This document shows, one piece after another, positions 4,092-58,700 of a DNA stretch of 64,000 nucleotides. The stretch covers positions 5,783,774 through 5,847,773 of the forward strand of contig JAVTVX010000030.1 of assembly GCA_033439265.1 (NCBI GenBank), given 5' to 3'. Source of the DNA: Dillenia suffruticosa. Its lineage: Eukaryota; Streptophyta; Magnoliopsida; Dilleniales; Dilleniaceae. Numbering within the stretch: position 1 is the stretch's first letter; each line of letters begins with the position of its first letter. The notes beneath the pieces are model-generated. The model saw nothing but the letters and a program-made list of their open reading frames with translations, ran no database searches and was not told the origin of the DNA. The translations under genes were made by a program, and so were the position numbers.

Positions 4092-4175
4092 CCCTCACTT
4101 CAAGGCAACACCAAAGGTAAACCTCTCCACAATCCCCCAACTCCAAAACCTTAAAACCTCCGAGAACAACAAAAA

Positions 4176-4742
4176 ATGAGAAAACCCTCCCTCGCTTTCT
4201 CTCCAAATTCACCCTACCAATTCCTCCTCACTATCATCTTCCTCTTCACCTTCCACAATGTTATCAAGGGCCACGATCTCATCAGGGACACGTGTAACAA
4301 ATCTGCGAAAGGTGATCCAAACATCCACTACATGTTTTGTGTATATGCTCTCCAAGCAACCCCAAACGGCCATTGTGCAAGTCTCGGCGGACTAGGCATG
4401 AACTCCATCAAGTTAATTAGAGACAACATGACCAACACCAGGTGTCACACAAGACATCTCCTGGAAAACAAAAGGCTGGACCCATATGTTAAACAATGTC
4501 TAGAGGATTGCTTTGAGCTCTATTCGGATGCTTTGCCATATGTAAGACAAGCCATCAAAGAGTACAGGGCAAAGAATTATGTTGATGCAAATATACATAT
4601 AAGCGCAGCCATGGATGCTTCAACCACTTGTGAAAATGGGTTCAAGGAAAAGAAGGGTGTGGTTTCTCCATTGACGAAGAGAAACAAAAATACTTTTGAG
4701 TTGTCTGCAATTGCACTTTCCATTATGAACATGGTTGGCTAA
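4176..4742 (+). CDS. Pectinesterase/invertase inhibitor family protein (Pla a 1-like)
   Basis: A single-exon frame of 188 residues. Residues about 15-32 are a hydrophobic signal peptide (QFLLTIIFLFTFHNVIKG), so the protein is probably secreted to the cell wall. The four cysteines typical of PMEI-domain helical-bundle proteins are at 40, 55, 112 and 152 (DTC, FCV, EDCF, TCENGF). Residues 67, 90 and 108 are extra cysteines. The C-terminal stretch CENGFKEKKGVVSPLTK closely resembles plane-tree pollen allergen Pla a 1 and related 'putative invertase inhibitors'. The family blocks cell-wall/vacuolar invertase or pectin methylesterase by a 1:1 complex; sequence alone does not say which. The start is supported by the signal peptide immediately after it and by the TATA box 90 bases upstream. 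The gene stands alone, with repeats on both sides. Confidence 0.9.
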   Translation: MRKPSLAFSPNSPYQFLLTIIFLFTFHNVIKGHDLIRDTCNKSAKGDPNIHYMFCVYALQATPNGHCASLGGLGMNSIKLIRDNMTNTRCHTRHLLENKRLDPYVKQCLEDCFELYSDALPYVRQAIKEYRAKNYVDANIHISAAMDASTTCENGFKEKKGVVSPLTKRNKNTFELSAIALSIMNMVG

Positions 4743-21091: not shown

Positions 21092-21954
21092 GCCTACAAA
21101 AAAAACACGGTTTTAGCCACGGATTTTCGCGATGGAAAAAATTCGTCGCTATTTTGCGACGGATTTAGCGACGAAAAACTTTTTCGTCGCTAATTTGCCA
21201 CAAAATTTGCAACAAAAAGGAAGTCGTGGCTAAATTAGCGACGGACACATCATTCATAGCAAAATTCGTCGCTAATTAGTGACGAAAAAATTTTCGTCAC
21301 TAAATTCGTCGCTAATTAGGAACAAAAAATTTTTTGTTGCAAATTTCGTCGCTAAATATGACAAAATTTTGCCACAAATTTAAAATTCGTCGCAAAATTT
21401 AATCTTTTTTAAATAGAATTTTATTTTTTTATTTTTTTTTCTTTTATGTAATATTTAAGTTAAAAATCAATTTAGCGACGGATTTATTTTCCGTCGCTAA
21501 ATGAAAATCTCAATCCGTATATCCGATAATTTAGCAACGGATTAAAATCCGTCGCTGAATTTATTTTATTTTTATTTTATTTTAATAATTTCAGCGACGG
21601 ATTCCCAAATCCGTCGCTGAATTTTATATTCTTTTAATTATAATTTTATTTTATTTTTATTTTATTTTAATTTTATTTTATTAATTTGTATTAACAAATC
21701 ATATTATTATTTTATAATATTTTAATTTACATTTTATTTTATTATATTATATTTCATTTTTTAGAAGAATAATGTTATTTAATTCTTAAAAAAACCATAT
21801 ATTTTATTTTATTTAAATTATATATATTTTTTAATTAATTTATTATTTTTTTTACTTTTTTTGTTTGATTTAAAATTTTTTATTATTGTATAGGTAATTT
21901 TATTTTATTTGTATTATTTTATTCAATAATATAAAATTTTTAATTAAATATTAA

Positions 21955-22568
21955 TATGTCTGCGCGGGCGCCTGCCTGCCTGGGCGCCCGCGCCCTGCGC
22001 GTACCTGTCTCGGCGCTTGCGGGTGCCTGCTTGGGCGCCCGCGCCTGGGCGTGCCTGCCTGGGCGCCTAGGCGTGCCTGCCTGGGCGCCTAGGCAGGCAG
22101 GCGCGGGCGCCCGCGCCCCAGCAGGAGCGCGCGCACGCCCGCGCGTGCCTGCCTGCGCGCCCGCACCTGGGTGTGCCTGCCTTGGCGCCCAGGCAGGCGC
22201 GGGCGCGCCCGGGCACGCCTGCCCTGGGCGTGCCAGCAGGCGCACGAGCGCGCACGCAGCGCGTACCTGTCTCGGCGCTTGCGGGTGCCTGCCTGGGCGC
22301 CCGCGCCTGGGCGTGCCTGCCTGGGCGCCTAGGCGTGCCTGCCTGGGCGCCTAGGCGTGCCTGCCTGGGCGCCTAGGCAGGCAGGCGCGGGCGCCCGCGC
22401 CCCAGCAGGAGCGCGCGCACGCCCGCGCGTGCCTGCCTGCGCGCCCGCACCTGGGTGTGCCTGCCTGGGCGCCCAGGCAGGCGCGGGCGCGCCCGGGCAC
22501 GCCTGCCCTGGGCGTGCCAGCAGGCGCACGGGCGCCCACGCAGGCAGGCGCGGGCGCTCGCGCCTGGG
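21955..22568. repeat. GC-rich minisatellite (GCCTGCCTGGGCGCC type)
   Basis: About 600 bases at very high G+C sit inside sequence that is mostly A/T. Short units such as CGTGCCTGCCTGGGCGCCTAG repeat, and a block of about 262 bases (from 22001) is duplicated from 22263, with one extra 22-base unit in the second copy. The units contain self-complementary GCCTGGGCGCCCAGGC, so the array can fold. Frames across it are open only because of composition and repetition; they are not genes. Confidence 0.9.
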
Positions 22569-22599
22569 TTCCCTTTGTTTTAATTCTAAAAAAACATGC

Positions 22600-22668
22600 A
22601 GATGGAGGGATTCGAACCTTGGACCTTCGACTTCGGATTTGAGCAGATCACCACTCCACCATCACTTG
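22600..22668 (-). other. tRNA-like B-box block inside the CACTA-type element
   Basis: Read on the minus strand, TGGTGGAGTGGTGAT is followed about 35 bases on by GGTTCGAATCC, resembling the A and B boxes of a tRNA. The acceptor stem does not pair, so this is not a functional tRNA. Similar GTTCGAACC blocks occur at 23310-23322 and 28168-28180 in the same element family. Confidence 0.5.
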
Positions 22669-25011
22669 GTATTAGTGTTATGTGATGATATTTTTGTTTT
22701 CTTTTTTCCACCTTTTTGTTTCCTATTCTTATTTTTCTTTTCTTTTGGTTTTTTTTTTTCTTTTTATTTTCATTTCTTATATATAATAAATTTATTGAAA
22801 TTTGAATAAAAATATTTTGTAATTAAATATATAGATTTTTTAAATTATTAATATATTATAATTTATTGATAATTATAATTTTATAGTTTTAAGATACATT
22901 TTTAAATTATGGATTAAAAAAATAAAATAAAAATGAAAAAGAATAATAAAATAATAAAATAAAAGAAAAAAAGAAGAAATCAAAATATAATATTAATATA
23001 TTTTTTAATTAATTTATTATTTTATTTTAAATTAGTATTTTATTATTTTTTATTTTATTAAAAATTATCATATTTATTAGTTTTAATTAAATATTATTTT
23101 AGGTTGGTGGTATAAATAAAAAAAGTTTTTATATTTATTATTTTAAATTGTTATTATATATTATTTTATTATTATTAGAAAAATGTGAAAAAAAAAGATA
23201 ATAAATAATAAAAAAAAAAACTTTATATCACAATAATATCGTTGGCTCGGTGGTTTACAGGTTGCGTGTGTGCAGGAGTTCTGTGCAGGAGTTCGTGCAA
23301 GAGTTCGGAGTTCGAACCACGGTGTTGGCAGAAGTGCGACATTTTCCAGCAATTAAGAGTTGATGCTGCTGGCTCGGGCGGGCAGGTTGCAGGGCGGGCG
23401 GGCGGGCGGTCAGGTGGGGTGCTGGCTTGGGCGGGGGCAGGTTGCAGGGCGGGCGGGCGGTCAGGTTGGGTTGGTGCTGGGGTGGGTGGGCACGTGGATT
23501 TGCAGGCTCATGGGCAGGAATCAACGACGGATTCCGAATCCGTCGCTAATTCAGCGATGGATTTTAGCGACGGATTCCAAATCCGTCGCTAATTCAGCGA
23601 CGGATAATTTTTTGACGAGTTTGTATTCCGCTAAATTAGCGACGGATTTTAGCGACAAAAATTATCTGTCGTTAAATTTAGCGACGAATAATTTTTCGTT
23701 GCTAAATTTTGTGACGAATTTTAGCCTCGAAAACTTATTTGTTGCTAAATTTAGCGACGGATTCCAGATTTTCGTCGCTAAATTTAGCGACGGATTTCTA
23801 ATTTTCGTCGCTAAATTTTTGCGACGCGTTATTAGCGACGAAAAATTTTTCGTCGCTAAATCCGTCGCTAATGTTTTTATCGACGAATTTTTTTAAAATT
23901 TCCGTCGCTAAATTTGTGGCTAAAACGCTATTTTTTTGTAGTGGAAATTCAACCAATGAAGAACAAATTCATGAAAAACAAAGAAATGTTATATTCAAAA
24001 AAAAAAAGAAAGAAAGAAAAGTCGATGTTGGAGATTATGTGGATTTCTAAGCATATTCCTGGTAATGTACAGTAGAAAAGGAAAGGAAGCGACATCCAAA
24101 ACAAATTTAGACATCATAGCCTTGTAAATAGGCACATGAATAACCCCCCAGAACTGAAAATAATAAAACTTGCTGGAATTGTAGACAATGTAGACATAGC
24201 ACAACACCAAGAAACTAGGTTAGGAAACAATCGAAATAAAAAATTATTAATATACAAAAAATTTGCATTTACTCACTTTCCGGTAGCTGATCTCAAACGA
24301 CAAGTCATGTATGAATTTGACCTAAAAAAATTTTAAAAAAGGCACAATGTGGGAAAAAATTACAAATCTGATCCAATTTTGTCGAGTTTTTAAGACTCAA
24401 CATACTGCTATCCTCCCCACAACCTACCTTATTTCCATTGGAGGGTCTTACATCATCATGGTGGAAGTTAGAAAAAACTGGTAGGGACATGTGGTATAGA
24501 GGTGATACATCATCTCTCTCAACCTGTATCAATCAATCACCTATGTAGATATCGGGACGAGTTTCTCTCTATAGAGTCCTTGGAGTGAAAATAAGAGGGA
24601 AGTCATCAACGATAGGCATGACAAAAGATGAAGACTTTGCATATCAACTAGAAAGTCCTGTGACATTGGGTAGATGCTAAGAAGGTGACGATGATGTATG
24701 ATTTGACGACGGTAGTGGCCTCCTAGATTGTACTCTCTCTTGCCGTTGTTCACATCCTCGATCCTCATCATCTCTCTCGCCATCACATCTAATCGGTTTA
24801 AATCTCAAGAGGTATGTCATATTATCTGTCAAGACCACAATAACTGAGTCTGCCATCCCATGTACGTCAACACCGTTAGAGTCTCGAATCTAATGTAGAA
24901 AATTCCACTGCAAGAAAGTACATATGTGTGAGTTAAATTAACAAATCTAGATTATTGATATAAATCAAAAATAACAAATTGTACACTTACTACATAGTTC
25001 AAACAATCTCC

Positions 25012-26091
25012 TTAACAACCTATGAAGCAATAGGTGATGGCACGAAACCAGGCGCTGTAGGCAGAATCGACAGTGGGTCCAAGTGACATGTCAAGTGGAG
25101 TTAACTGGTCGCAACGCAGTGTCCAAATGTCAACATATCGTGCATGCTTGACGAACCAATCAATCTCTTGTAGACTACATGTGCTAGTTTTGTAAAATCG
25201 ATTCTCAATATCACAATGAATCAGAATATACTGTATACCTCCAAACCGACATATCACTTTATCAGGGAAATGTCACTTCACAATACTAAAACAGATAAAT
25301 GATACGCGAGTATACCAAATATCTTTACTCTCGTGACAATAGTCGGGAATGAAAGACAATATACTCTTAGTGTAATGCACTGTCACTATGTGCGTAGAGG
25401 GGTTGTCACATCAAACTCCACTTTCTACTACAAAACTAGAGGAATATCATTCTCCAAATCCAGCGATCATCTAATGAGAATAATATAAGAAAACATCTCC
25501 CATGCCTAAATCTATTAAAAAAAAATGAGTGTCCAATTTATCTCATGCGAGTTTGCATGCGTAACTATAAAAAATTATCTATACAACTATATCAAATACA
25601 TAAAACACCAACTATGATGACCAGAAATATCTAAATTCTTTAAAAATAACAAATACTATAAATATACGAAGTGTGAAATCTTATCACAAAATAACACATC
25701 CCCTATCAACAATAAAATATATATCTGCGTCTATCATAAAATATGTATATCATCAACACTCTCGGACAACACACCAAAAAGCTCAGATAACCAAGGTATG
25801 CCCAAAAAATTATCCTTAAATGCTGAACATGGAGCTCTAACACCTGACAGCCTCTTACTCATATTACCCCATGAAACACCCATTGACCTACCCATCACGG
25901 GAATTCCATCTATAGACAACCCTAAAAGTACTCCACATCCTGTAGTGTGATCGTGAGCTTACCATGAGGTATATGAAAAATGTGTCTTCTATCTCCATCT
26001 CAATTTAGGAATGTCAATCTAGTTGAATGAACCATAGTCAAGTAGCGCCCAAAAACCCCGACTGCTTTAGGAGAAGGAAAACCAACTCATC
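25012..26091 (-). pseudogene. Plant mobile domain, C-terminal part of the MULE frame
   Basis: Readable family landmarks in order on the minus strand: FIQLD (about 26040), FHIPHGKLTITLQDVEYF (about 25975-25925), GLSIDGIPVMGR (25925-25890), AFKDNFLGIPWL, YILLLIGDVLFCDK (about 25725-25680), LDDRWIWRM (about 25465), VRQARYVDIWTLR (about 25150) and AYSAWFRAITYCFIG (25057-25015). This order matches proteins annotated as 'serine/threonine-protein phosphatase 7 long form homolog' and MAIN-like, which share the transposon-derived plant mobile domain. The frame is split by several shifts and stops. The left half of the domain lies beyond the CACTA insertion, at 30265-30430. Confidence 0.85.
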
Positions 26092-26424
26092 AATCACTAC
26101 AAAAAAATTCGGTATTGACGACGGATTTAACGATGGAAATTTAAGAAAAATTCATTGCTAAATTTTTTAGCAATGGAGTTAATGATGAAAAATTAAATGA
26201 TATATCGCAAAAATTTAGCATCGAAAATTAAAATCCGTAACTAAATTTAGCGATGAAAATCCAAATCATTGCTAATGCACATGCCCACACACGCGATCAA
26301 GCCTGCCTACACCCACGCGCCCGCTAGTATACCTGCCTGCCTACCTTCTTTTATTTGCAAAAATTGTTTCCACTCGGATTCAAACATGTGTATGCAAAGT
26401 GTTGTTGAGTTATGACAACCACTA

Positions 26425-28904
26425 CACTACAAAAAAACACGTTTTTTGCGACGAACTTTAGCGACAAATTTTTTTCGTTTCAATTTTGCGACGAATTTTA
26501 CGACGAAAACTTTTTTTGTCGCTATTTGCAACGAAATTTCCAACGAAAAAAAAGTTGTAGCTAATTTAGCGACGACCGGAAATTCGTCGCTAATTTTGCG
26601 ACGAATTTATGAATTCGTCGCAAAATTTGAAAAAAAAAATTATTTATATATATTTATTAAATAATTAATTATTTTTGCGACGAATTTAGAAATTCGTCGC
26701 TAATTTTGCGACAAATTTCGGAATTCGTCACAAAATTTGAAAAAAAATAATAATAAAATATTAATATATATTTATTAAATAATTAATTAATTTTGCGACG
26801 AATTCTAAATTCGTCGCTAATTTTGCGACGAATTCTAAATTCGTCGCTAATTTTGCAACGAATTTTCGAATTCGTCGCAAAATTTGAAAAAAAAAATAAA
26901 ATACTAATATATATTAATTAAATAATTAATTAATTTTGCGACGAATTTTAAATTCGTCGCTAATTTTGCAACGAATTTTCTAATTCGTCGCAAAATTTGA
27001 AAAAAAAAAATTATTTATATATATTTATTAAATAATTAATTAATTTTGCGATGAATTTAGAAATTCGTCGCTAATTTTGCGACAAATTTTGGAATTCGTC
27101 GCAAAATTTGAAAAAAAAAATAAAAAAAAAAAAAAAAAAAAATTAATATATATTAATTAAATAATTAATTAATTTTGCGACGAATTCTAAATTTGTCGCT
27201 AATTTTGCAACGAATTTTCGAATTCGTCGCAAAATTTGAAAAAAAAAATTATTTATATATATTTATTAAATAATTAATTAATTTTGCGACGGATTCAAAA
27301 TTCGTCGCTAATTTTGCAACGAATTTTCGAGTTCTTCGCAAAATTTGAAAAGAAAATTAAAAAAAAATTAAAATATTAATATATATTAATTAAATTTTTA
27401 ATTAATTTTGCGACGAATTTATATTCGTCGCTAATTTTGCAACGAATTTTCTAATTCGTCGCAAAATTTGAAAAAAAAAATTATTTATAAATATTTATTA
27501 AATAATTAATTAATTTTGTGACGAATTTAGAAATTCTTCACTAATTTTGCGACAAATTTCGAAATTCGTTGCAAAATTTGAAAAAAAATAAAAAAAATAA
27601 AATATTAATATATATTAATTAAATAATTAATTAATTTTGCGACGAATTCTAAATTCGTCGCTAATTTTGCAACGAATTTTCGAATTCATCGCAAAATCTG
27701 AAAAAAAATAAAATTATTTATATATATTTATTAAATAATTAATTAATTTTGCGACGAATTCTAAATTCGTCGCTAATTTTGCAACGAATTCTGAATTCGT
27801 CGCTAATTTTGCAACGAATTTTCAAATTCGTCTCAAAATTTGAAAAAAAATAAAAAAAAATAAAATATTAATATATATTTTTTATTTTTTATTTTAATAT
27901 AATTATCACATTTATTATTTTTAATTAATATCTTATATTTTATTTTTATTTTATCTTTTTTAAAAATAGTATTATTATTTTTTTATATCTTTTATTATTT
28001 TATTTTAAACTAATATTTTATTATTTTATAATAAATTGTTATTTTATATTGTTTTATTATTATTAGAAATTTGTGAAGAAAGATAATAAGTAAAAAAAAA
28101 ACACTTATAACAGATACTAACATTTAACTTGATGGTTACAGGGTCTTAAACGTTTACGAAAGTGCAAGGGTTCGAACCATGGTGGGAGCAAAATGTAGAC
28201 ATTTTCAAGAATTAAGTGAGGGAGGGCTTGTGGGCGCCGGCTCGGGCGAACATGCGGGCGGATACTGGCTCGGGTGGGCGGGCGGGTGGGGTTCAGGCGG
28301 GAGCGCATTTTTTTTTCATTGCTAATTTAGCGACGGATTTAGCGACGAATTTATATCCGTCGCTAAATTTGAAAAATAATAAAATAAAATAAAATATTAA
28401 TTTATATTTATTAAATAATTAATTAATTTTGCGACGAATTCCGGAATTCGTAGCTAAATTTGCGACGAATTCCGGAATTCGTCGCAAAATTTGAAAAATA
28501 ATAAAATAAAATAAAATATTAATATATATTTATTAAAAAATTAATTAATTTTGCGACGAATTCCGAAAGTCGTCGCAAAATTAGCGACGAATTCCGGAAT
28601 TCGTTGCTAAATTTGAAAAATAATTAAATAAAATAAAATATTAATATATATTTATTAATTAATTAATTAATTTTGTGACGAATTTTGGAATTCGTCGCTA
28701 AATTTGCGACGAATTTAGCGACGAAAAATTATTCGTCGCTAAATTTAGCGACGAATTTCTAATTTTTCCTCGCTAAATTTTTGCGACGCGTTATTAGCGA
28801 CGAAAAATTTTTCGTCGCTAATTTCGTCTCTAACGTTTTAGCAACGAATTTTTATTAAATTTTTGTCGATAAATTTGTGGCTAAAAGTTGGTTTTTTTGT
28901 AGTG
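26425..28904. mobile_element. Non-autonomous CACTA-type element nested in the outer one, TSD CTA
   Basis: Left tip CACTACAAAAAAACACG at 26425; right tip TTTTTTTGTAGTG ends at 28904. CTA lies on both sides (26422-26424 and 28905-28907). It is 2480 bp and encodes nothing. The left 1.4 kb is a tandem array of palindromic modules, the right 0.6 kb has the same modules, and between them lie an AT-rich core, a GTTCGAACC block (28168-28180) and a GGGCGGGC-rich patch (28220-28305). It sits inside the GC/tRNA-like zone of the outer element. Intact tips and target duplication make it the youngest insertion of the nest. Confidence 0.92.
26450..27860. repeat. Array of ~105-150-bp palindromic units (GCGACGAATT...AATTCGTCGC)
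   Basis: About eleven units, each holding TTTTGCGACGAATT, AATTCGTCGCTAATTTTGC, ACGAATTTTCGAATTCGTCG and CAAAATTTGAAAAAAA followed by an ATTAATATATATTAATTAAA-type AT block. About three more units lie at 28330-28720. Each unit contains short perfect palindromes and opposed copies, so a transcript would form stacked hairpins. In CACTA elements, repeated subterminal motifs bind the transposase; here they have grown into a satellite-like array. Confidence 0.88.
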
Positions 28905-31900
28905 CTATATCACAATCCGTTTTGTGATTTTTTTTTCTTTTATTATCTTACTCTCACTTTTTATTATTATTATTTATCTCACTCTCATATCTATTTTTTT
29001 CTTCTTCATCTAGGGGTATTTTTTTTTTCTTTTCTATTCTCATTGAATTTTTTTTATTGTTTAAATTTGATTTTGATTAAATTAGTAATAAATAAAGAAA
29101 TAAAATATTTTTTGAGCCAAAAAGATAAATTTGATTAATTAAGATAGAATAACAAATTCTTTTTCTTGATTTATCCAACAAAAGGGATATGATTTGTTAA
29201 TTTTATCATAAATTTATTTTCTTGATTTACCCAATAAAATGAATAATAAAATAATAAAAATAAAGAAAATAAAAGAATGTTATGTTATACAATAACAAAG
29301 AAAGATAAAAAAGGGAAAATAAAAAGTTAAATTCTAGCAAGGAAATTCTTAATTTTATTTTGAAAATTAAAAATAATTTATATTTTGAATTATAATAAAA
29401 ATTAGTTTTAATAAAAAATTATTGATTAATGATAAAAATTAATCATTCTCTTTTTGACAAAAATTACTATAGTGAGTTAGTGACAAATTTAGTGACGGAT
29501 GTATATTTCCGTCGCTAAATTTTGTTACAAATAATTTTTTTGTGACTAATTATTGATAAATTTAGTGACAAAAAATTTTTGAAACTAATTACCGATAAAA
29601 TTTGTCACAAAATTTTTTTGTCACTAAATTTAGTGACAGATATGTATTTCCGTCGCTAAATTTTGTGATGGGATTGTGCTTCCATCGCTAAATTAGCGAC
29701 GGATTCTTGAATCCGTTATTAAATTTTTTTCTTTTATTTTTGAAATTAGTATTTTATATTTTATTTTATTAGTTTTTTCTTTTCTTTTATTAATTTATTA
29801 ATTTCTTTTATTATTTTATTATTCTTTTACTTTTTTTTTTTGAAATCTAAGGAAAGTTTGTAAACGAATGGTTACAAATTTAGTGATAAAAAATTATTGT
29901 AGTTAATTAGCGACAAAATTTGTCACAAAATTTTTTCGTTACTAAATTTAGCGATGAAAAGAGTATTCATTACTAAATTTAGTGATGAATACTCAATTTG
30001 TGATAAAATGTAGCCATAAATTTTTTATTCATCGTTAATTAATGATAAATTTTACAACGAAAATATTTTCGTTGCCAATTAACGACGAATTTAGTTACGA
30101 ATAAATTATTCATCGTTAATTTGGCCACGAATGCTTTTTCATCACAAATTTTGTCGTTAAATAGCAACGAAACTCTTTTTCGTCACTAAATTCGTCACAA
30201 AATAGCGATTAATTTTTTTCATAGCCAAATTCTATCACACAAACTGTATTTTTTTGTATTGAATATAGCCGTGTTTCCAACATCGTAAAACTGCCTATGT
30301 CAGCAGTAAGTGAGCCAAATAATGTCTTCTCCATCCTAAACTCTCGACAAATGTTGACCTTGTTGGAAGTATAGAATGCTCTGATCAGCAAGTCCAAAAT
30401 CTATCTGAGACATAATGAAAAAATAATTAGTCATTAAGCAAGATAGTGAAATATCTATAAGTTATGAAATAATGAAATGATAATTCGTGAGATGGTTTAC
30501 CAAATGACTGTAAATATGAGTGAATATTTTAAGAAAGCTATAAAATATAATAACAATTAATGTTCATTAAAAAATATATTAATATAAAATGATATCCGTC
30601 ACATTAAAAAATATAAAATGTACACTTAAAATACATTAACAATCAAACATTATTGATTTGGGTTGGGTAATATCTTTGATTGTGCTCCTATCTACTACAA
30701 AGTCTAGACTTCATTTGCTTTGTGCATCTCTTCCTATTGTGAACCTCGCACTACAACTCCCACATAATATCCGCAATGATGATACTCAAATCTCGTTGTG
30801 ATATAGAGATGATCTAGATCTTCTTTTCTCACATCGAAGTGATACATCAAGAGTGACAGTTAGGTACGAACTTACGGGTCAACCCGAATGGTCTCCCACT
30901 AATAAAAAATGATATTCATAAACTCTAAATAGGTGTTCCCAAATCATCCATTTCCTAATGATCATATGCATATCAATTATCATCTCTATTAGTACAGCAA
31001 CTGCATGAGAGCAAGGAATTCAATATGTTTGTCATTTTCTGCATAAGCAATACTTATTTTTCGTATCCACAATCTGTTTATTATCTCTCTTGTGACAATA
31101 TCTTGTTTATTTGTTTCTACTTTAAAAATCCTATACTCTTGTTAAAAGAGATAACCGTATAGAGGTTAGTCGCATTCATCTATCACCCTAGCATGGTTGA
31201 GGCATACTTTATTTACTACTCTCCTCTTACCATTCCCGCTCTCACCTCACCTAGTCGAGCCTCAAAATAGTTCACAAAATTGTAGAAAGTCTTAAACACC
31301 AAGACAGAAATAGATAGATTCCTTACACCCTTTAACATAGTATTATAACTTACACTTATATTTGTCATCATATATCCAAAATGAAAGCCAGAATCGTGAC
31401 AAAGAGTCCATTATTCAAAGGCAATATTCGCAAAATAATTGGGAGTATCTTTTTTTATCTCCTTCATTCTCGTCATGTATAAGCTCAAAGTTCTTATGCT
31501 ATGGCTATAATGCAGTAATGATCACAACTCTCTTACAAGCTTAACTTTTATGATGTCTGTTGAAATTACTAAGAACATAACACATGTAAAATCATGACAC
31601 AATATTCAGAGGTGATCATCCAAACTTTGGACGATCAATTAGTACTCTTATTCCTTTATGCCTACCTAAAATTAAACAAATGGAACCCTATCTATTTCCA
31701 ACACATGCTCTCGCACATAGCTCACAAACCATAATCACGAAGCAAGTAACTTTTCGTCAGCCAATCCGAATGTCAATGGGACAATGTGATTGGCGCCATC
31801 CATACTGCTTGCAATTAACAAATTGTGTTTATATTTCCCATAGAAGCGAGTCTCATCCACACATACCAATAACCTATAACTCTTAAAAACCATGATGTTA

Positions 31901-32126
31901 CACTACAAGAAAGCTAATTTTCAGCGACGAAAAATTATCGAAAGAAAAAATCCGTCATAAATAGCGATGGATTAACGTCGGATGAAATACCAAGAGATTA
32001 GCGACGAAAATATTTCTATCGTTAATCCGTTGTTGTAGTGATCTAGAGTAAAAAAAATATAAAACTATTAGCGACGGATTTAACGACGGAAAATATCTGT
32101 CATTAATCTGTTGCTGTAGTGGTGAA

Positions 32127-32176
<50 letters not shown>

Positions 32177-32532
32177 TATCAGCGACAGATTAGCGACAGA
32201 AATTTTAGCGACGGATTTTTTTAATTTTTTAATTTTTTAATTTTTCTTCTCTTTTATTATTTTATAATTCTTTTTCTTTTTTCTTTTATTTATTTTAGTT
32301 TTTTCTTTTATTCTATTAATTTATTATTTAATTTAATAGGTAAATAAAAAAAATAATTTGCTATTCAATGAAAATATTCAATAAAAAAATAATTTTCTGT
32401 CGTTGATATTTAGTGACGGATGTATTCTGTCGGTAATAATTAGCGGGTAGGTTTTCAGTAACGAAAATTTTTCGTCGCTAATACCTTTAGTGACGAATTT
32501 TTCTATCGCTGATACCTTGTTTTCTTGAAATG
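31901..32532. mobile_element. Small CACTA-type element in the MULE transposase, TSD TTA
   Basis: Left tip CACTACAAGAAAGC at 31901; right tip TTTTCTTGAAATG ending at 32532 (imperfect inverse). TTA flanks both ends (31898-31900 and 32533-32535). It is 632 bp with ATTAGCGACGGATT-type subterminal modules, a (TA)n tract at about 32136-32175, and two internal TTGTAGTG/CTGTAGTG copies at about 32031-32038 and 32114-32121 that look like old ends. It differs in tip sequence (CAAGAAAG) from the three larger elements, so it is a separate subfamily. Confidence 0.85.
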
Positions 32533-33799
32533 TTATGACCAAATACTCAAAACACTGCTTCAAATAACCTTTCACTATTTGCATTTGGCAGACCAAACTT
32601 TCAACTGACTCGTGTCCTTAGATTCTTTTACACTATTGCATCTAATAGACAAAATAGTTGTTTGTAAGAATCATCATAATCCTCATATATCATCTATTTC
32701 TCATCGCTGCCCAAATTCTTTTACAAAAAACTGCATATGTAGTTTTCTCCATCTTAATAGTTCATAGAAAAGAAATTTTGACATTATGATCTTTGTTTGC
32801 ATTGTTAAGAAAATATCGGGTCATCAAATTTGAATATACCTGCCTATGATCCTATGCCAACCAAAATTTACACGTGTACGGTCCGTCAACAACGATAATC
32901 ACAAAAGCATCAATAAGTCTTATTCTACGAGCATACAATCTCTGCCTATAATCTTCATCTCTTTGAATACATATTATTGTCCAAAGTGTAAGAGTTGATT
33001 TTCCAACACAAAATTGATAATGATGTTCCACATTGTATATTTTGGCAGCATGAATAAATGTTCTTTCGTCTCAAATCTCATCCTCCTTTTCAATTTCTCA
33101 CTGAAACTCCAATTATCAACTGTCAATCTACTATATTCTTTAAAAGACACATAACCATCACCTCCGATTGTAGTGGTCATGAAGGGAATTGATTCACCTA
33201 TTTAGCCATAGACATTACCATGACCACCACCTCCGGGTGCAGAGACCGAGGAGGACCTTATCATGAGCTCGTTGGCATCACCACCATCACCATCAAGTTC
33301 TCTATCATCTTCATCCTCATCATTATCTTCTTATTTTGCCTCTTCTTTTGACATTTCTTCTTGATCAACATTGTGATCCACTTCTGTGAAAATAAAATCC
33401 ATTTGAAATTCGATATATGGATAAATATCCGTATAATCACAATCTTGTTGCGACGAGATTCCACCATTATAAGATTTTATATACAACTTATAAGTGGAAT
33501 CCGCTCCCATACTCACTACAAACTCCATCAAATTAAAAATATCGTCATTATCACTTATCGACACCAATTTATACCATATATTTGTACGTTAAATGTTTGA
33601 GACAGGACACGGATGAAAAACCTCCATATTTTGTATCATAGAATTTATCTAAAAACTCTTACATATCACAGATACTAACTTATTAAAATAGATATTTTTT
33701 CTCACTCTAATTAATTTGGAAGGACCATGATCTTAACCAACATCCTTCTCACCCATAACAATATCACCATTATTATAGTATAACAATTTTGCCATATCT

Positions 33800-36898: not shown

Positions 36899-39800
36899 CT
36901 TTTATCTTTACATGGAAGTATCTCCCAATGATAGTATTAGAATTAGGTCCTGCTATATTTTGGGCTTACAACATGAGGTTTCTACCACCTACTAAGCTCA
37001 AAATCGATGCTGGAATTGATTCTTACTTTTCATGAATTTTCCTAAAATGGATTAACCATAATTTGAGTAGGATTAAATCCCCATATACTTTGAGACCCCT
37101 TTTATATTAACTTTGTCTGGACTTTTGAGATAAGCCCAACATAATTAAGGTGAAGATTAGACAAGCCATGTATTTGTGATATACTAATGTCTTTCTGAAT
37201 TATGTAATCACTATGAAACCATACATGTTTACGGTCTCCTAAATAAATATTAGTTTTCCACTGGTTGACTTGCTGAGTTCATCCTGGTTAATTGAAGATT
37301 GAGAAGAATTGCAGAAGGAAAATAAGTCTTTGTCTTTGTCTCGGTGGCACTACTTTTCTTTTAGTGGACTCTAGTATGCCGTAAATGTGAAGGTAAATAA
37401 CAAAAAGTTACGTCTTATTGGACCTTGGCACTCTAATGAATCATAAGAAGCTGGCTTCTTTCATTTTTTTTATACTGATTTTTACTTATAGCAGATGCAT
37501 ATCTTTGTCCGTCTCTGTGGATGTGTGTCAAATTTTGGGGCGTAAACTGGATTCTTCCTTTTCTTTAAGAAATGATTCTTTCTTGAGGTGTTGGTTGCAT
37601 CCTAATCGTTGATAAGAGGTCAAGCTGAAATAATCTCGGGATTACTTAATCTGTTTATTGTGTTTTCCCCAAAAGAAGAGAATGGGGATGATGGATTGAA
37701 GTGGAGCAGTTTCTTTTGTGTGAGGATAGAGGATTTAATTTTTTTACCCACACATGGCATGGGGCAGGGACATGACAACCCTCCTTCCAGGATCAAAATT
37801 TTCGGTCACAGGAATTCTCAACACTCTGCCCCCATTTCTTTCCCATTTCCGCTAAAACTGTGAAGTTGTGTACGGTTGGATTGACAAAAGAAGAAGCTCA
37901 TAGATGTCAATCCTATTTTAAGTGCATGTTTATACCTGATTGAAGATTTGAAGTTTAACTTTTTTCGTTTTATAACAATAGGTTCTTTCTTTGTGTCAGT
38001 AGATGAAGGTCAGTTTTTTATTTTTATTTTTTACGCATTAAGACATGTCTATAACTAATAAAGAGAAGGTGAAAGTTTTAAGAATATGTTCTCTCTCTCT
38101 CTCTCTCTCTCTCTCTAACATATTTATGGTTAATCTCATCAAGACAATGTTTTGTAAAACCGAAACTTATGCTTGAATATTTGAAATTGATGTGGTTATG
38201 CGTAGGGAGATGTAAATACATATATCTGCAAGTTATCCACCTGCAGATGTACCACCCCTAGATGAATATGCAAATGATACAGTGATTTCAATATCTAGAA
38301 GTATGTGTTTGTAAGTGTTTTGTGCTTATATGCATAATGCGTGTGTATGTGCGCGTGCACACGTGCTGAAGTTCAAAACTTGCTCTAGTCTCACACAAGG
38401 GAATGAGTGCTATACTATAAAGTAGGCTTCCGGAGTTATGTGAACAGCCTTACGTGATCAGAAATTTTGTTTGAAAAGGATTTTACCAGTAAGCTATCTC
38501 CCTGTTAAAAGGATTTAACAAAACTTTCCACACTGGAGTAATTCACTCAGTAGGATTGCACTATCATCCCTAAGTCTCAATTAAAGGAAAAGAACTCAAG
38601 GCTCTGTCTTGTTCTAGGATTGGTCATGCTCTCATTCACAGATATGTATGTGCGTGCCATATAACCCCCTTTGGAGGTAAACATATGAACTAATTAAAAT
38701 GTCCCTTAAGTAAACTTTGGTGTAAGAATGTGTCAGTCAGAATATGGAGCAGTTTTTAACCTGTCTTATAACTTTGTGTAAAATGTTTCCAGGATAAAGC
38801 ACCTTCTTTTCAAACTTTGTTGGTGATCTGCCTAGAGTAAAACGCTTAAGTAAAATTCTCATGTGTGACATTTACGCATGGCAGCTGTATAATTAAACTT
38901 GGATCTCCTTAATGGTTTGAAATGATTGTTTTTGTAACAAGTAACTTTATGAGTGATAACAACTTAGGTGATGCAGCTGAATTGTGTGGAATTGATTTGC
39001 ACCATTGATACCGTTGTATCTTGCATTAAAAGTAAATGGCTACTATAATTGGCCATATATCCTTTTGATTTTGTTGATATACTCTCTGGAACTACATGAA
39101 AACTATTGGTATAAAATAAAAAGCACATATTTGGGATATGTAGTTCTAGAATTACTTACCATACATGTGTATATTGTTCTGCTGACCTGATGGTTCTTTT
39201 ATCCAATTTGCTTTTTTGCCTTAGTTGCTTGGATCCCCCGGCACAATTCCTATTCTAACTAACCGAAATGTCTGAGTTTTGTATGTGATAAGAAATAATC
39301 CTGCGTATCAGTTCAACAGGGCCAACTGTTTGGATTCAAAATTCAGTTTGTCGTGTATCTCATAATTAAGTGAATCCTCACTGTTTATAAATATATATAA
39401 TATCCATATAATTAGGTACTTGATGATACTTTCTGTGATTTGTGCTTACAGATACCCAAGAACCAGTTTTGGACAGAGACAGCACTACAACTGACCTCCC
39501 ATTATTTGGCAGATTAAAGCGTTGGCAATGGTGGCTTTTGGTAGCAATGAACATCTTCTTTCTCATTTGTGGACAATCTGCTGCAGTTCTTTTGGGGAGA
39601 TTTTATTATGACCAGGGAGGAAATAGCAAATGGATGGCGACACTTGTTCAAACAGTTGGATTTCCTATTCTTTTCATCCCGTTCTTTCTTCTCTCTTCAT
39701 CAGAGGGAGCCCCTGCTCCTTCTGCTCCGCCTTCTCCCACCACTTTGGCCTTGGTTTACTTCACTCTTGGAGCAGTGATAGCTGGTGACAACATGTTGTA

Positions 39801-40548
39801 CTCTGTTGGGCTCCTGTATCTCTCTGCATCTACTTATTCACTTATTTGTGCTACTCAATTGGCTTTCAATGCAGTTTTTTCCTTCTTCCTGAATTCCCAG
39901 AAGTTCACTGCTTTAATATTCAATTCTGTCATTATTCTCTCGTTATCTGCTGCTCTCGTTGCAGTTGATGATCACTCTGATGAACCTTCAGGAGTCTCAA
40001 AGCTGAAATATTTCAAGGGATTCGTATGTACCCTTTCTGCTTCTGCATTGTATTCACTTATACTGTCTCTCATGCAGCTTGCTTTCCAGAAGGTTATAAA
40101 GAAAGAAACCTTTTCTGTGGTCCTAGAAATGCAAATTTATACATCAGTAGTCGCTAGTTGTGTTACTACTATTGGGCTTTTTGCAAGTGGCGAGTGGAAG
40201 ACTTTGAAGGGAGAAATGGAAGGTTTCAGTAAGGGGAGTGCATCTTATGTAATGACTTTAGTTGGGACAGCTCTTGCTTGGCAGATTTGTGCTGTTGGTG
40301 TTGTGGGCTTGATTTTTGTTGTGTCTTCGCTCTTTTCCAATGTTATTAGCACTGTTGCTTTGGCACTTTGTCCCATTGCTGCTGTAGTAGTTTTCCATGA
40401 CAAGATGGATGGAGTGAAGCTCATTGCCATGCTTCTGGCTCTGTGGGGTTTTGCTTCTTATCTCTATCAGAATTACCTTGACGATCGGCGGGCTACAAAA
40501 GCACAAAGGGATGCTAATTTAACCCACACTAATTCTTCTTGCGGATGA
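36720..40548 (+). CDS. Purine permease family transporter (PUP11-like)
   Basis: Exon 1 codes only ATGACAG (36720-36726) before GTTTCT; exon 2 is 39452-40548 after GTGCTTACAG. Joined, they read MTDTQEPVLDRD... and give 367 residues. Exon 2 has no ATG in the right place, so the 7-nt coding exon decides the start. The protein has about ten hydrophobic helices of the drug/metabolite transporter fold, with family landmarks GRFYYDQGGNSKWMATLVQT and LYSVGLLYLSASTYSLICAT and, near the end, VALALCPIAAVVVFHDKMDG. Plant PUPs move adenine, cytokinins or related bases with protons across the plasma or internal membranes; the substrate here is not predictable. A TATA-like TTTATAGA (36653-36660) and a CT-rich leader precede the start. 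The 2.7-kb intron carries CT repeats (about 36872-36898, 38092-38117). No breaks are seen. Confidence 0.93.
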
Positions 40549-55736: not shown

Positions 55737-58700
55737 AGTGATATCAGAATTAGTACACGACTCCACAAAAGTGCTGACTCTTGAGTAAAAAATCTAATGG
55801 GTTCACATATTACTTTTGGCTAACTCACAAATAAGGCTCATTATTTCAATGGAGTTAACTTCTCTTATTGGAAGTATAGAATGGAAACCTTTATACAAGC
55901 CACCGATTATGAATCTTGAGAAGTTATTTTTTAAGGAAACCTAGAAGTAAAAACCTTATAATAACTAAAGAAGATAAAAGAAAAATGTCAATAAATTCAC
56001 GAACAAGACATCTGTTGTTATGTGTAATATCTCCAACTGAATTTAACTTAGTTTGTTTTTGTTTTATAGCCAAAGAAATATGGGATAGATTGTGCATCAC
56101 TGACAAAAGTACAAGGACTGTTAAAGACACCGGGATTAATTTTCTTATATTGGAATATGAACTGTTTAAATTTTGGTAAGGAGAACATATAAAAGAGATA
56201 TTTAATCGACTTATTTCAATCACAAACGAACTGGGGTCTCTTAGAAAAAGTCTTTCAAATACTGATCTTGTTAGAAAAATTTTAAGGATATTCCCTAGGG
56301 CCTGGAATGCAAAAAACACAGTAATTAAGGAAGTCCAAGATTTGTCAAAGTTGTCATTGAATGAGCTAAGAGGAAAACTCATGGTTTATGAAATAGAAGT
56401 ATATTATTTTGCACTAAATGAAGGGAATAAAAAGAGTATTGCATTCATGGCAAAGGAGGAAACAAAATCTAAAGAAGACAATAACGAAAATGAGATGAAC
56501 TTGTTGGCTAGAAACCTGTCTCGAATGTTCAGAAAAAGAGGTAAAAAATCTATAAAATTTCAAAAAACTAATGTCTTTCAAAAGTCCAAAAATGATAAAG
56601 GAAAAGGCATCCAAATGAAGGAAGAAAAGAAAGAAGTGGTATACTATGAATGTAGAAGATCTAAACATATAAAATATATATGTTCAGTTCTTGCAAAGAA
56701 AATGCAGAAGTTTTAGAAGAAAGCTAAATCAATGATGGCTACTTGGAGTGATCTAAATGAATCAACAAATCTAACATCTGTTTAATGGCAAATTTTCAGA
56801 TGAAATCTAACTCTGAATGCTGTGAAAATTTTAATTTTGATATTAACAATATACTAAAATTGATTTTAGAGTTTAGATGCAAAATTCAGCACTTAGAAAA
56901 TGAAAAAAAAAAACTTCTAAAATAGACAAACGATATTCTGAATTCTAAAAATGATAGTTTAAAATTTGAAAATGATGATTTAATATCTGAAAATGATATT
57001 TTAAAATATGAAATTATGGCTTTAAAATTTGAAAAAGAAATTGTAAAGTCTGAAAATAGTGTTTTAAGAGAAGAAGTAAACTGAAAAATAGAGTAGAAGA
57101 TTTATCAAAATCAATAAAATCAACCTTCCAAAAATTTAATGAAAATGATGGGAAATTAACTAGGCCACTTACATTTCAAAAACTTGATTTTTCCAAAAAT
57201 GGTTTAAGGTATAAGTTTGAAAATGAGTTTGGTTTACAAACTAATAAAATAGTGATTGTCACTGTAGTAAAAAATAGAGAACATAAAAAACTTCAGAAGG
57301 CAGAAATCAAGTATAGAAGCAATGATCATAGAAACAAAGCTTTCAGGGGTAGAAGAAGTCATCAACTTGCCTATTTTTACAGAAATTTCAAAAGCTCTTC
57401 TAAATTACAAAAATTTGATTTTTACATGCAAAATCTCGATATACAAATGATTTTTAGAAAATGAAAAATAATTTTTCATACTTCTATTGTCATAAATTTG
57501 AGCATATTGGTAGATTTTGTTTGTTGAACAAACTTAGTAATAATTAAGAAAATTTTATTTCTAACACAAGTTTGTTATCTAGAGGATCCAAGCTAGTTTG
57601 GGTTTCTAAGAACAGATGATCTTATTTAATTTGTGCATGAACAAGAGGTTAAAGTAAAAGGAAAATGATATGTCAATAGTGGTTGCTCAAAATATATGAC
57701 GGGTGATGACTCATTGTTCAAAAAGTTGGAAAAGAATGAGTATGAAATGATAACATTTGGTGATGATAATAAGGGTAAAATTATTGGCAAAAGTACCATA
57801 GGTATAAACTCTATATTTGTAAAAAATGTCTTGCTTGTTGAGAAGTTAATGCATAATTTGTTGAGTATTAGTTAATTATATGATTTGGGATATGATATAG
57901 TTTTTTTTTTTAAATAAATGCATAGTTTAAGAGAAAATTGTTGGATATCCATAGAAAATAACATTTTTGCATGACATAAAAAATTAGGTTTTATAAACTT
58001 TAAACAATTAGAAAGTTTGTGTAAGAAAAATTTAATAAGGGATTTACCAAAAATATTTTTAAAGGAATACATAAAATCCAATGCATGTTCACTTAATAAA
58101 CAAGTAAAATCATTATTTAAAAGTAAAGATTATATTTCAACATTTAGATCTTTGAAAATTTTGTATATGGATTTAATGAACCAATTATAATTCAAAATTT
58201 AGAAGGAAATAAATATGATCTTGTAATTGTAGATGAGTTTTCTAGATTTAAATGCATTTTATTTTTAGTCAATAAAAATGATGTTTTTGAGTTTTTTAAA
58301 ATTTTTGTTAAGAAAATTCAAAATAAAAAAATCTAAAAATAGTTGGGTTAAGAACGGACCATGGTAGAGAATTTCATAATATAGAATTTTTAGAATATTG
58401 TAATAAAAAGTGAGTTAATCAATTTTTTTTGGCTCACTATATATCCCAACAAAATGGAGTAGTTGAAAAAAAATAGAACGATTTAAGAAATAACTAGAAA
58501 TATATTAAATGATAATGGTGTAAGAAAATATTTTTGAGTCGAGATTGCTTCTACTATTTGTTATATAATTAATAGAGTATATCTTAACCTTATGACCGTG
58601 AAAACTTTCTATGAATTATTTAAAGGAAGAAAATCTAGTGTGTCTCACTTTCATACATTTAGATATTCATATTATATTTTGAAAAATAATTTAAACGCTC

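What the first reader, a model, noticed from the sequence alone, without database searches (positions are those of the whole stretch)
26095..30261. Element inside element: two CACTA-type copies with perfect 3-bp target duplications
The sequence shows AAT on both sides of 26095-30261 and CTA on both sides of 26425-28904, with CACTAC...GTAGTG (or GTATTG) tips. Removing the inner copy rejoins the outer one, and removing the outer one rejoins a plant mobile domain reading (FIQLD side and QSILYFQQ side). This gives a clear order of events: MULE, then outer element, then inner element.
Basis: partly seen in the sequence, partly recalled or inferred. Interest (0 to 1): 0.72.

Follow-up and report, generated by a model that had tools for sequence, protein, structure and literature searches.

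The report
Jumping gene nested inside another
A plant DNA transposon sits inside an older one, which itself sits inside a still older decayed transposon; copies elsewhere in the same genome that lack each insert confirm the order, so this is a clean example of a common kind of event.

Summary
Outer element 26095-30261 is flanked by AAT/AAT, inner element 26425-28904 by CTA/CTA; tips are CACTAC...GTATTG and CACTAC...GTAGTG. Four other copies of the outer element run through the inner site without an insert (4 of 7 non-self loci cut). All 11 non-self loci cut from the host family run through the outer site with one target triplet (11 of 50 non-self matches). The host is a decayed MULE with plant mobile domain remnants, minus strand. 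So the order MULE, outer, inner holds. Both inserts are non-autonomous CACTA (En/Spm-type) elements. Two more CACTA-type copies lie nearby: 21092-23943, and 31901-32532 (TSD TTA), the latter in the same MULE and lacking in 7 of 11 relatives. Not novel in kind. Side feature: 18 of 32 related copies hold a tRNA-like A-box/B-box module at up to 2 mismatches, 0 in controls; the inner element landed in the outer one's A-box-like stretch. Whether the module works is unknown.

The parts
26095..30261 (-). Outer CACTA element (opposite orientation to the third copy); 1684 bp without the inner element
   Evidence: tips and AAT TSD; length; site empty in 11 of 11 MULE relatives tested; complete relative L011, 1893 bp, TSD ATT
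26092..26094 (.). left target-site duplication of outer element, AAT
30262..30264 (.). right target-site duplication of outer element, AAT
   Evidence: right flank begins AAT
26425..28904 (+). Inner CACTA element, 2480 bp, rich in GCGACGAA repeats
   Evidence: tips and CTA TSD; absent in 4 outer-type relatives; 45 GCGACGR motifs
26422..26424 (.). left target-site duplication of inner element, CTA
28905..28907 (.). right target-site duplication of inner element, CTA
25015..32996 (-). Decayed MULE with plant mobile domain that hosts the outer and fourth elements; true ends not defined
   Evidence: SWIM 26.8 bits, cut-off 19.6, and MULE PF10551 14.2 bits, cut-off 27.6; PMD PF10536 pieces at profile 32-49, 50-104, 276-347, each below cut-off; 51 matches of 30262-30860 in the genome, self included; relatives align to about 32996
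31901..32532 (.). Fourth CACTA-type element, tips CACTACAAGAAAGC ... GTTTTCTTGAAATG (right tip degenerate), TSD TTA at 31898-31900 and 32533-32535
   Evidence: joined flanks continuous in 7 of 11 MULE relatives
21092..23943 (+). Third CACTA-type element; right tip GTAGTG intact, left tip GCCTAC degenerate, no matching 3-bp duplication
   Evidence: right end 82% identical to inner over 245 bp, stopping at the tip
26376..26424 (-). tRNA-like stretch of the outer element: B-box-like TGTTTGAATCC; A-box-like part cut by the inner insertion
   Evidence: B box 2 mismatches; joined sequence printed; A-box matches in relatives L009 and L012
28125..28179 (+). A/B-box-like module in inner element (2 and 1 mismatches)
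22608..22661 (-). tRNA-like module of third element, A box TGGTGGAGTGG, 32 nt, B box GGTTCGAATCC, no mismatch
23243..23319 (+). second A/B-box-like module of third element, facing the other way (1 and 2 mismatches)

Best explanation
Successive insertions of plant DNA transposons. A non-autonomous CACTA (En/Spm-type) element was pasted into the plant-mobile-domain stretch of a MULE copy, duplicating AAT; later a second non-autonomous CACTA element of a related subfamily was pasted into the first, duplicating CTA. A transposase supplied in trans by an autonomous CACTA element recognised the CACTAC tips and the GCGACGAA-type subterminal repeats and made 3-bp staggered cuts. Shown: tips, duplications, empty sites, order. 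Inferred: the transposase, its binding to the repeats, and whether the MULE was already decayed when hit.
For: Tips and duplications exact. Inner site empty in 4 of 7 non-self loci cut. Outer site empty in 11 of 11 non-self loci cut, of 50 non-self matches. 17 of 32 other copies have a right tip followed by their own 3-bp duplication (the right tip of L035 is weak and L022 offers two). Homology among third, inner and outer elements stops at or within 7 bases of the tips. Chance control negative. No stop-to-stop frame of 120 codons or more in the outer or inner element, so non-autonomous.
Against: The outer right tip (GTATTG) has one mismatch to the others. MULE and PMD matches other than SWIM lie below Pfam's cut-offs. 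No MULE terminal repeats found. No autonomous CACTA partner shown: the search for PF02992 in the genome did not complete.
Confidence: 0.97

Rival explanations
1. Two CACTA elements landed side by side, or one composite element moved as a unit, and the nesting is only apparent.
For: These elements share similar repeats, so boundaries could be misread.
Against: Four outer-type relatives are continuous across the inner site and two of them have their own matching 3-bp duplications (L011 1893 bp ATT; L009 2347 bp GTT), so the outer element exists alone; the crossed tip pairings lack matching flanks.
Confidence: 0.02
2. Chance: A-rich tips and 3-bp matches arise by themselves in a 32% G+C window.
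For: With two mismatches allowed, 18 tip-like matches occur where 9.6 are expected and 2 of 100 shuffles reach 18.
Against: 0 of 300 simulated windows gave an exact tip pair with matching 3 bp; genome copies share the tips.
Confidence: 0.005
3. The inner element's landing in the outer element's A-box-like stretch was directed: in this orientation it reads CCACTA, like the CACTA tip.
For: The CTA target is part of CCACTA.
Against: One event only; among the 17 copies with a duplication CTA occurs once (L031).
Confidence: 0.05

Closest known systems
CACTA (En/Spm, CMC) superfamily of plant DNA transposons
   Same: CACTAC tips, 3-bp target duplication, subterminal arrays of short direct and inverted repeats (as described in passages of PMC8978399 and PMC2613891)
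   Different: No long open frame, so no transposase, in either element; the GCGACGAA-type motif differs from the En/Spm, Tam1 and Tgm motifs (recalled); tRNA-like modules, which the passages seen do not mention (a term search for tRNA in PMC8978399 found none)
MULE with plant mobile domain (PMD), as in Ikeda et al. 2017, PMC5418596 (passages seen)
   Same: MULE transposase remnants and PMD remnants on one strand, transposase first
   Different: Decayed here, and a single fused frame was not shown; that paper reports MULE-PMD fusions in several grasses and Amborella, while this window has 32% G+C, low for a grass (recalled); species not identified

Membership tests
CACTA superfamily | CACTA-type terminal inverted repeats | tested here: met
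   26 of 32 other copies have the left tip
CACTA superfamily | 3-bp target-site duplication | tested here: met
   AAT, CTA in the window; 17 of 32 other copies; empty sites with one triplet
CACTA superfamily | subterminal repeat arrays at both ends | tested here: met
   GCGACGR 45 in inner, 21 in third, but 0 and 1 in the two outer parts, where diverged versions such as GCGATGAA and GTGACGGA stand (sequence) and the ends still match the third element at 73-74%
CACTA superfamily | tnp2-type transposase gene (autonomous members only) | tested here: not met
   no stop-to-stop frame of 120 aa or more in outer or inner element: both read as non-autonomous
CACTA superfamily | autonomous partner in the same genome | not tested
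   search unanswered
MULE with plant mobile domain (host) | MULE transposase and SWIM finger | tested here: met
   SWIM 26.8 bits, above cut-off 19.6, read with X at stops (a shorter piece scored 14.7); MULE domain 14.2 bits, below cut-off 27.6
MULE with plant mobile domain (host) | plant mobile domain | tested here: inconclusive
   three pieces hit PF10536 in order, E 0.007, 0.019, 0.11, all below cut-off
MULE with plant mobile domain (host) | terminal inverted repeats and about 9-bp target duplication | tested here: inconclusive
   no long inverted repeat between 33.5-38 kb and 17-25.5 kb; best 47 bp at 77%; duplication not looked for

The most novel reading that the evidence does not exclude
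These CACTA families carry outward-facing RNA-polymerase-III-type internal promoters (tRNA-derived A and B boxes 31-34 nt apart) between their body and their G+C-rich subterminal part, kept for a role in transcription of the ends (small RNAs, insulation or transposition control); the inner insertion broke the outer copy's promoter. (Probability set at 0.15, lowered from a first 0.2, because the conservation test proved biased.)
Probability: 0.15. Interest if true: 0.55.

Novelty: new member of a known kind. Interest (0 to 1): 0.25.

Why it matters
The nest is a textbook example with each step backed by empty sites, useful as a calibrated case for nested-transposon annotation. The part that could matter is the tRNA-like module shared by many of these CACTA copies. 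In the held library, searches for CACTA with tRNA-derived, SINE, polymerase III and subterminal terms (1 paper), CACTA with tRNA-like (3 papers) and DNA transposons with tRNA-derived promoter terms (8 papers) listed no paper whose title or abstract start concerns it; none of those 12 was opened. If the boxes drive transcription, that would be an unusual way for a DNA transposon to make RNA from its ends.

Tried and rejected
Third element 21092-23943: no 3-bp duplication found; left tip degenerate. MULE terminal repeats: not found. ARAGORN found no tRNA in the window and no Rfam tRNA match appeared among the 58 matches at E up to 1 in 20.8-30.6 kb, so the modules are not intact tRNA genes. Rfam matches in the CACTA repeats (MIR6297 best, 55.6 bits, cut-off 114) are below gathering scores.

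Against the module reading: in the window itself the region 21092-30261 has 6 A/B-box pairs at up to 3 mismatches against a shuffle mean of 0.69 (1 of 100 shuffles reaches 6), but at up to 4 mismatches 6 against 5.44 (42 of 100 reach it), and pairs at up to 3 mismatches also occur outside the elements (44777, 47027, 61975). The outer-type relatives L009-L011 have no module at up to 2 mismatches (0 of 3); L012, tested only, has one with a perfect A box and two B-box mismatches. Conservation test: a model with boxes masked hit 20 of 33 elements, but 14 of the 20 were its own seeds, chosen because their boxes are good, so the box conservation (A 0.87, B 0.89, between 0.74, other columns 0.78) is biased upwards, and other 11-column windows reach 0.93: it shows nothing firm about selection. 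Copies also share descent.

A global-identity comparison of ends was dropped because its shuffled control (0.76) was as high as three of the six values. In that call no BLAST match printed between the joined outer element and the third or inner element spanned the junction (first 40 rows printed); gapped alignments across it scored above the shuffle maximum (73.5 against 59.5 for third_B; narrowly for the other two). A MAFFT alignment of four modules was poor. Long frames of other copies (first 90 residues, two best per locus) were looked at by eye only.

Rows and loci left out: one search scored 40 of 592 candidates; of its 39 non-self main places 35 were held and 32 used (L009-L011, L014-L042; L034 is the place of L007). 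Left out: L012 (its match lacks the left end), L013/L002 and L006 (orientation not sorted out); four places not fetched. One search scored 40 of 160 candidates; 11 of 50 non-self matches were tested; 7 of 11 span; L046, L047 and L054 gave no match and L048 a partial one; hits past the tip by more than 3 bases: inner right 4 of 33, inner left 9 of 27 (up to 100 and 91 bases; I read these as outer-type copies matching the inner element's flank, which is outer sequence, not checked one by one), outer ends 13 of 33 and 6 of 29 (up to 9 and 17), third right 2 of 33.
Full report
WHAT IS THERE. Read from the sequence, the outer element 26095-30261 begins CACTACAAAAAAA and ends TTTTTTTGTATTG, with AAT on both sides; the inner element 26425-28904 begins CACTACAAAAAAA and ends TTTTTTTGTAGTG, with CTA on both sides. 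The coordinates in the finding are exact. Of four possible pairings of these tips, the two nested ones have matching flanks and the two crossed ones do not. Random places in the window share 3 bp with probability 0.024, and 0 of 300 simulated windows held a tip pair with matching flanks.

THE INNER EMPTY SITE. The window lies in a 596-Mb genome of 37 contigs. The outer left 330 bp gave 53 matches (40 of 592 candidates scored), 33 of them, self included, starting at the first base of the tip. Eight loci were cut; one is the window. In four of the other seven (L003, L004, L005, L008, fetched longer as L009-L012) the outer element without the inner one aligns continuously across the junction, 72-76% identity over 1.07-1.38 kb, with no insert at the junction and one target triplet, CTA in three and CTG in L012. 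L011 (1893 bp) and L009 (2347 bp) have right tips followed by their own duplications, ATT and GTT. The other three loci match the end or scattered blocks only.

THE OUTER EMPTY SITE. The stretch right of the outer element (30262-30860) gave 51 matches, self included (40 of 160 candidates scored). Twelve loci were cut, one the window. In 11 of 11 others the two flanks, joined with one AAT, align continuously over 0.7-1.26 kb at 74-78%; the triplet is AAT in 7 and one base different in 4. So the outer element was inserted into a member of a repeated family, and the insertion is absent from every relative tested.

THE HOST. On the minus strand the flanks read as a decayed MULE: a SWIM finger above Pfam's cut-off and a MULE transposase match below it, then plant mobile domain pieces in profile order, each below the cut-off; other pieces gave nothing or unrelated weak hits. 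The frames are full of stops. Ikeda et al. 2017 (PMC5418596, passages seen) describe MULEs with a fused plant mobile domain in several grasses and Amborella.

MORE ELEMENTS. A fourth CACTA-type element, 31901-32532 with TTA on both sides and a degenerate right tip, sits in the transposase part of the same MULE; 7 of 11 relatives align across its joined flanks, three gave no match there and one a partial match. Its order relative to the outer element is not known. A third, 21092-23943, has an intact right tip, a degenerate left tip and no duplication; its right end is 82% identical to the inner element's over 245 bp and the match stops at the tip. Neither the outer nor the inner element has a stop-to-stop frame of 120 codons or more.

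GENOME COPIES. Of 32 loci examined (L009-L011, L014-L042), 26 have a CACTAC-type left tip where expected, which is partly by choice since they were found by that end, and 17 a right tip followed by the same 3 bp. Matches to the outer element's two ends go at most 9 and 17 bases past the tips; some matches to the inner ends run on into its flank, which is outer-element sequence (that reason is my reading).

A SIDE FINDING. The elements hold tRNA-like modules: an A-box consensus, 31-34 nt, then a B-box consensus. Third element: TGGTGGAGTGG, 32 nt, GGTTCGAATCC, no mismatch. Among 32 copies, 12, 18 and 22 have such a module at up to 1, 2 and 3 mismatches; reversed sequences gave 0, 0, 0 and five local shuffles 0 to 1. 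In the third element two such modules face outwards. No tRNA gene is called. The joined outer element reads TGATATAGTGG at the inner site, one mismatch to the A-box consensus by my count, so the inner element landed in an A-box-like stretch; relatives L009 and L012 have a perfect A box there. Limits: at 4 mismatches the window's count is no more than chance; the three outer-type copies L009-L011 do not pass at 2 mismatches; and the conservation test was biased, 14 of its 20 elements being seeds chosen for good boxes. Copies share descent, so likeness alone does not prove function.

MECHANISM. Shown: order, duplications, precise ends. From the lack of long frames: non-autonomy. Inferred from En/Spm (passages of PMC2613891, and PMC8978399): a transposase in trans acts on the tips, a second protein binds the subterminal repeats, and insertion leaves 3-bp duplications. 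The autonomous partner was not found because the search did not complete.

VERDICT. Confirmed and ordinary in kind; nested transposons are common in plants (recalled; for LTR elements the listing of PMC6911290 says so). The tRNA-like modules are the part worth a second look.

Noticed in passing
22608-22661, 23243-23319, 28125-28179, 26376-26424; L034, L033, L039 and others: tRNA-like A-box/B-box modules inside CACTA elements, 18 of 32 genome copies at up to two mismatches, 0 of 32 in reversed controls
   Followed up: partly
31901-32532: Fourth CACTA-type element with TSD TTA in the MULE transposase part; joined flanks continuous in 7 of 11 relatives
   Followed up: yes
21092-23943: Third CACTA-type element with G+C-rich internal tandem repeats (22-bp and 28-bp units), degenerate left tip, no target duplication
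   Followed up: partly
25015-32996: MULE with plant mobile domain remnants, a family with 51 matches (self included) of one 599-bp stretch in this genome; the window's 32% G+C is low for a grass (recalled)
   Followed up: partly
23664-23795 and other CACTA repeats: Below-threshold matches to plant microRNA families MIR6297, MIR9563 and MIR774: those entries may come from CACTA subterminal repeats
   Followed up: no
26419-26429: After the inner insertion its own tip completes a perfect A-box consensus (TAGTGTAGTGG) beside the outer B-box-like site; probably coincidence
   Followed up: no
39439-40548: Purine permease-like gene (PF16913, E 1.4e-131)
   Followed up: no
4155-4742: Pectin methylesterase/invertase inhibitor gene (PF04043)
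   Followed up: no
56180-56716: Copia-type gag remnant (PF14223)
   Followed up: no
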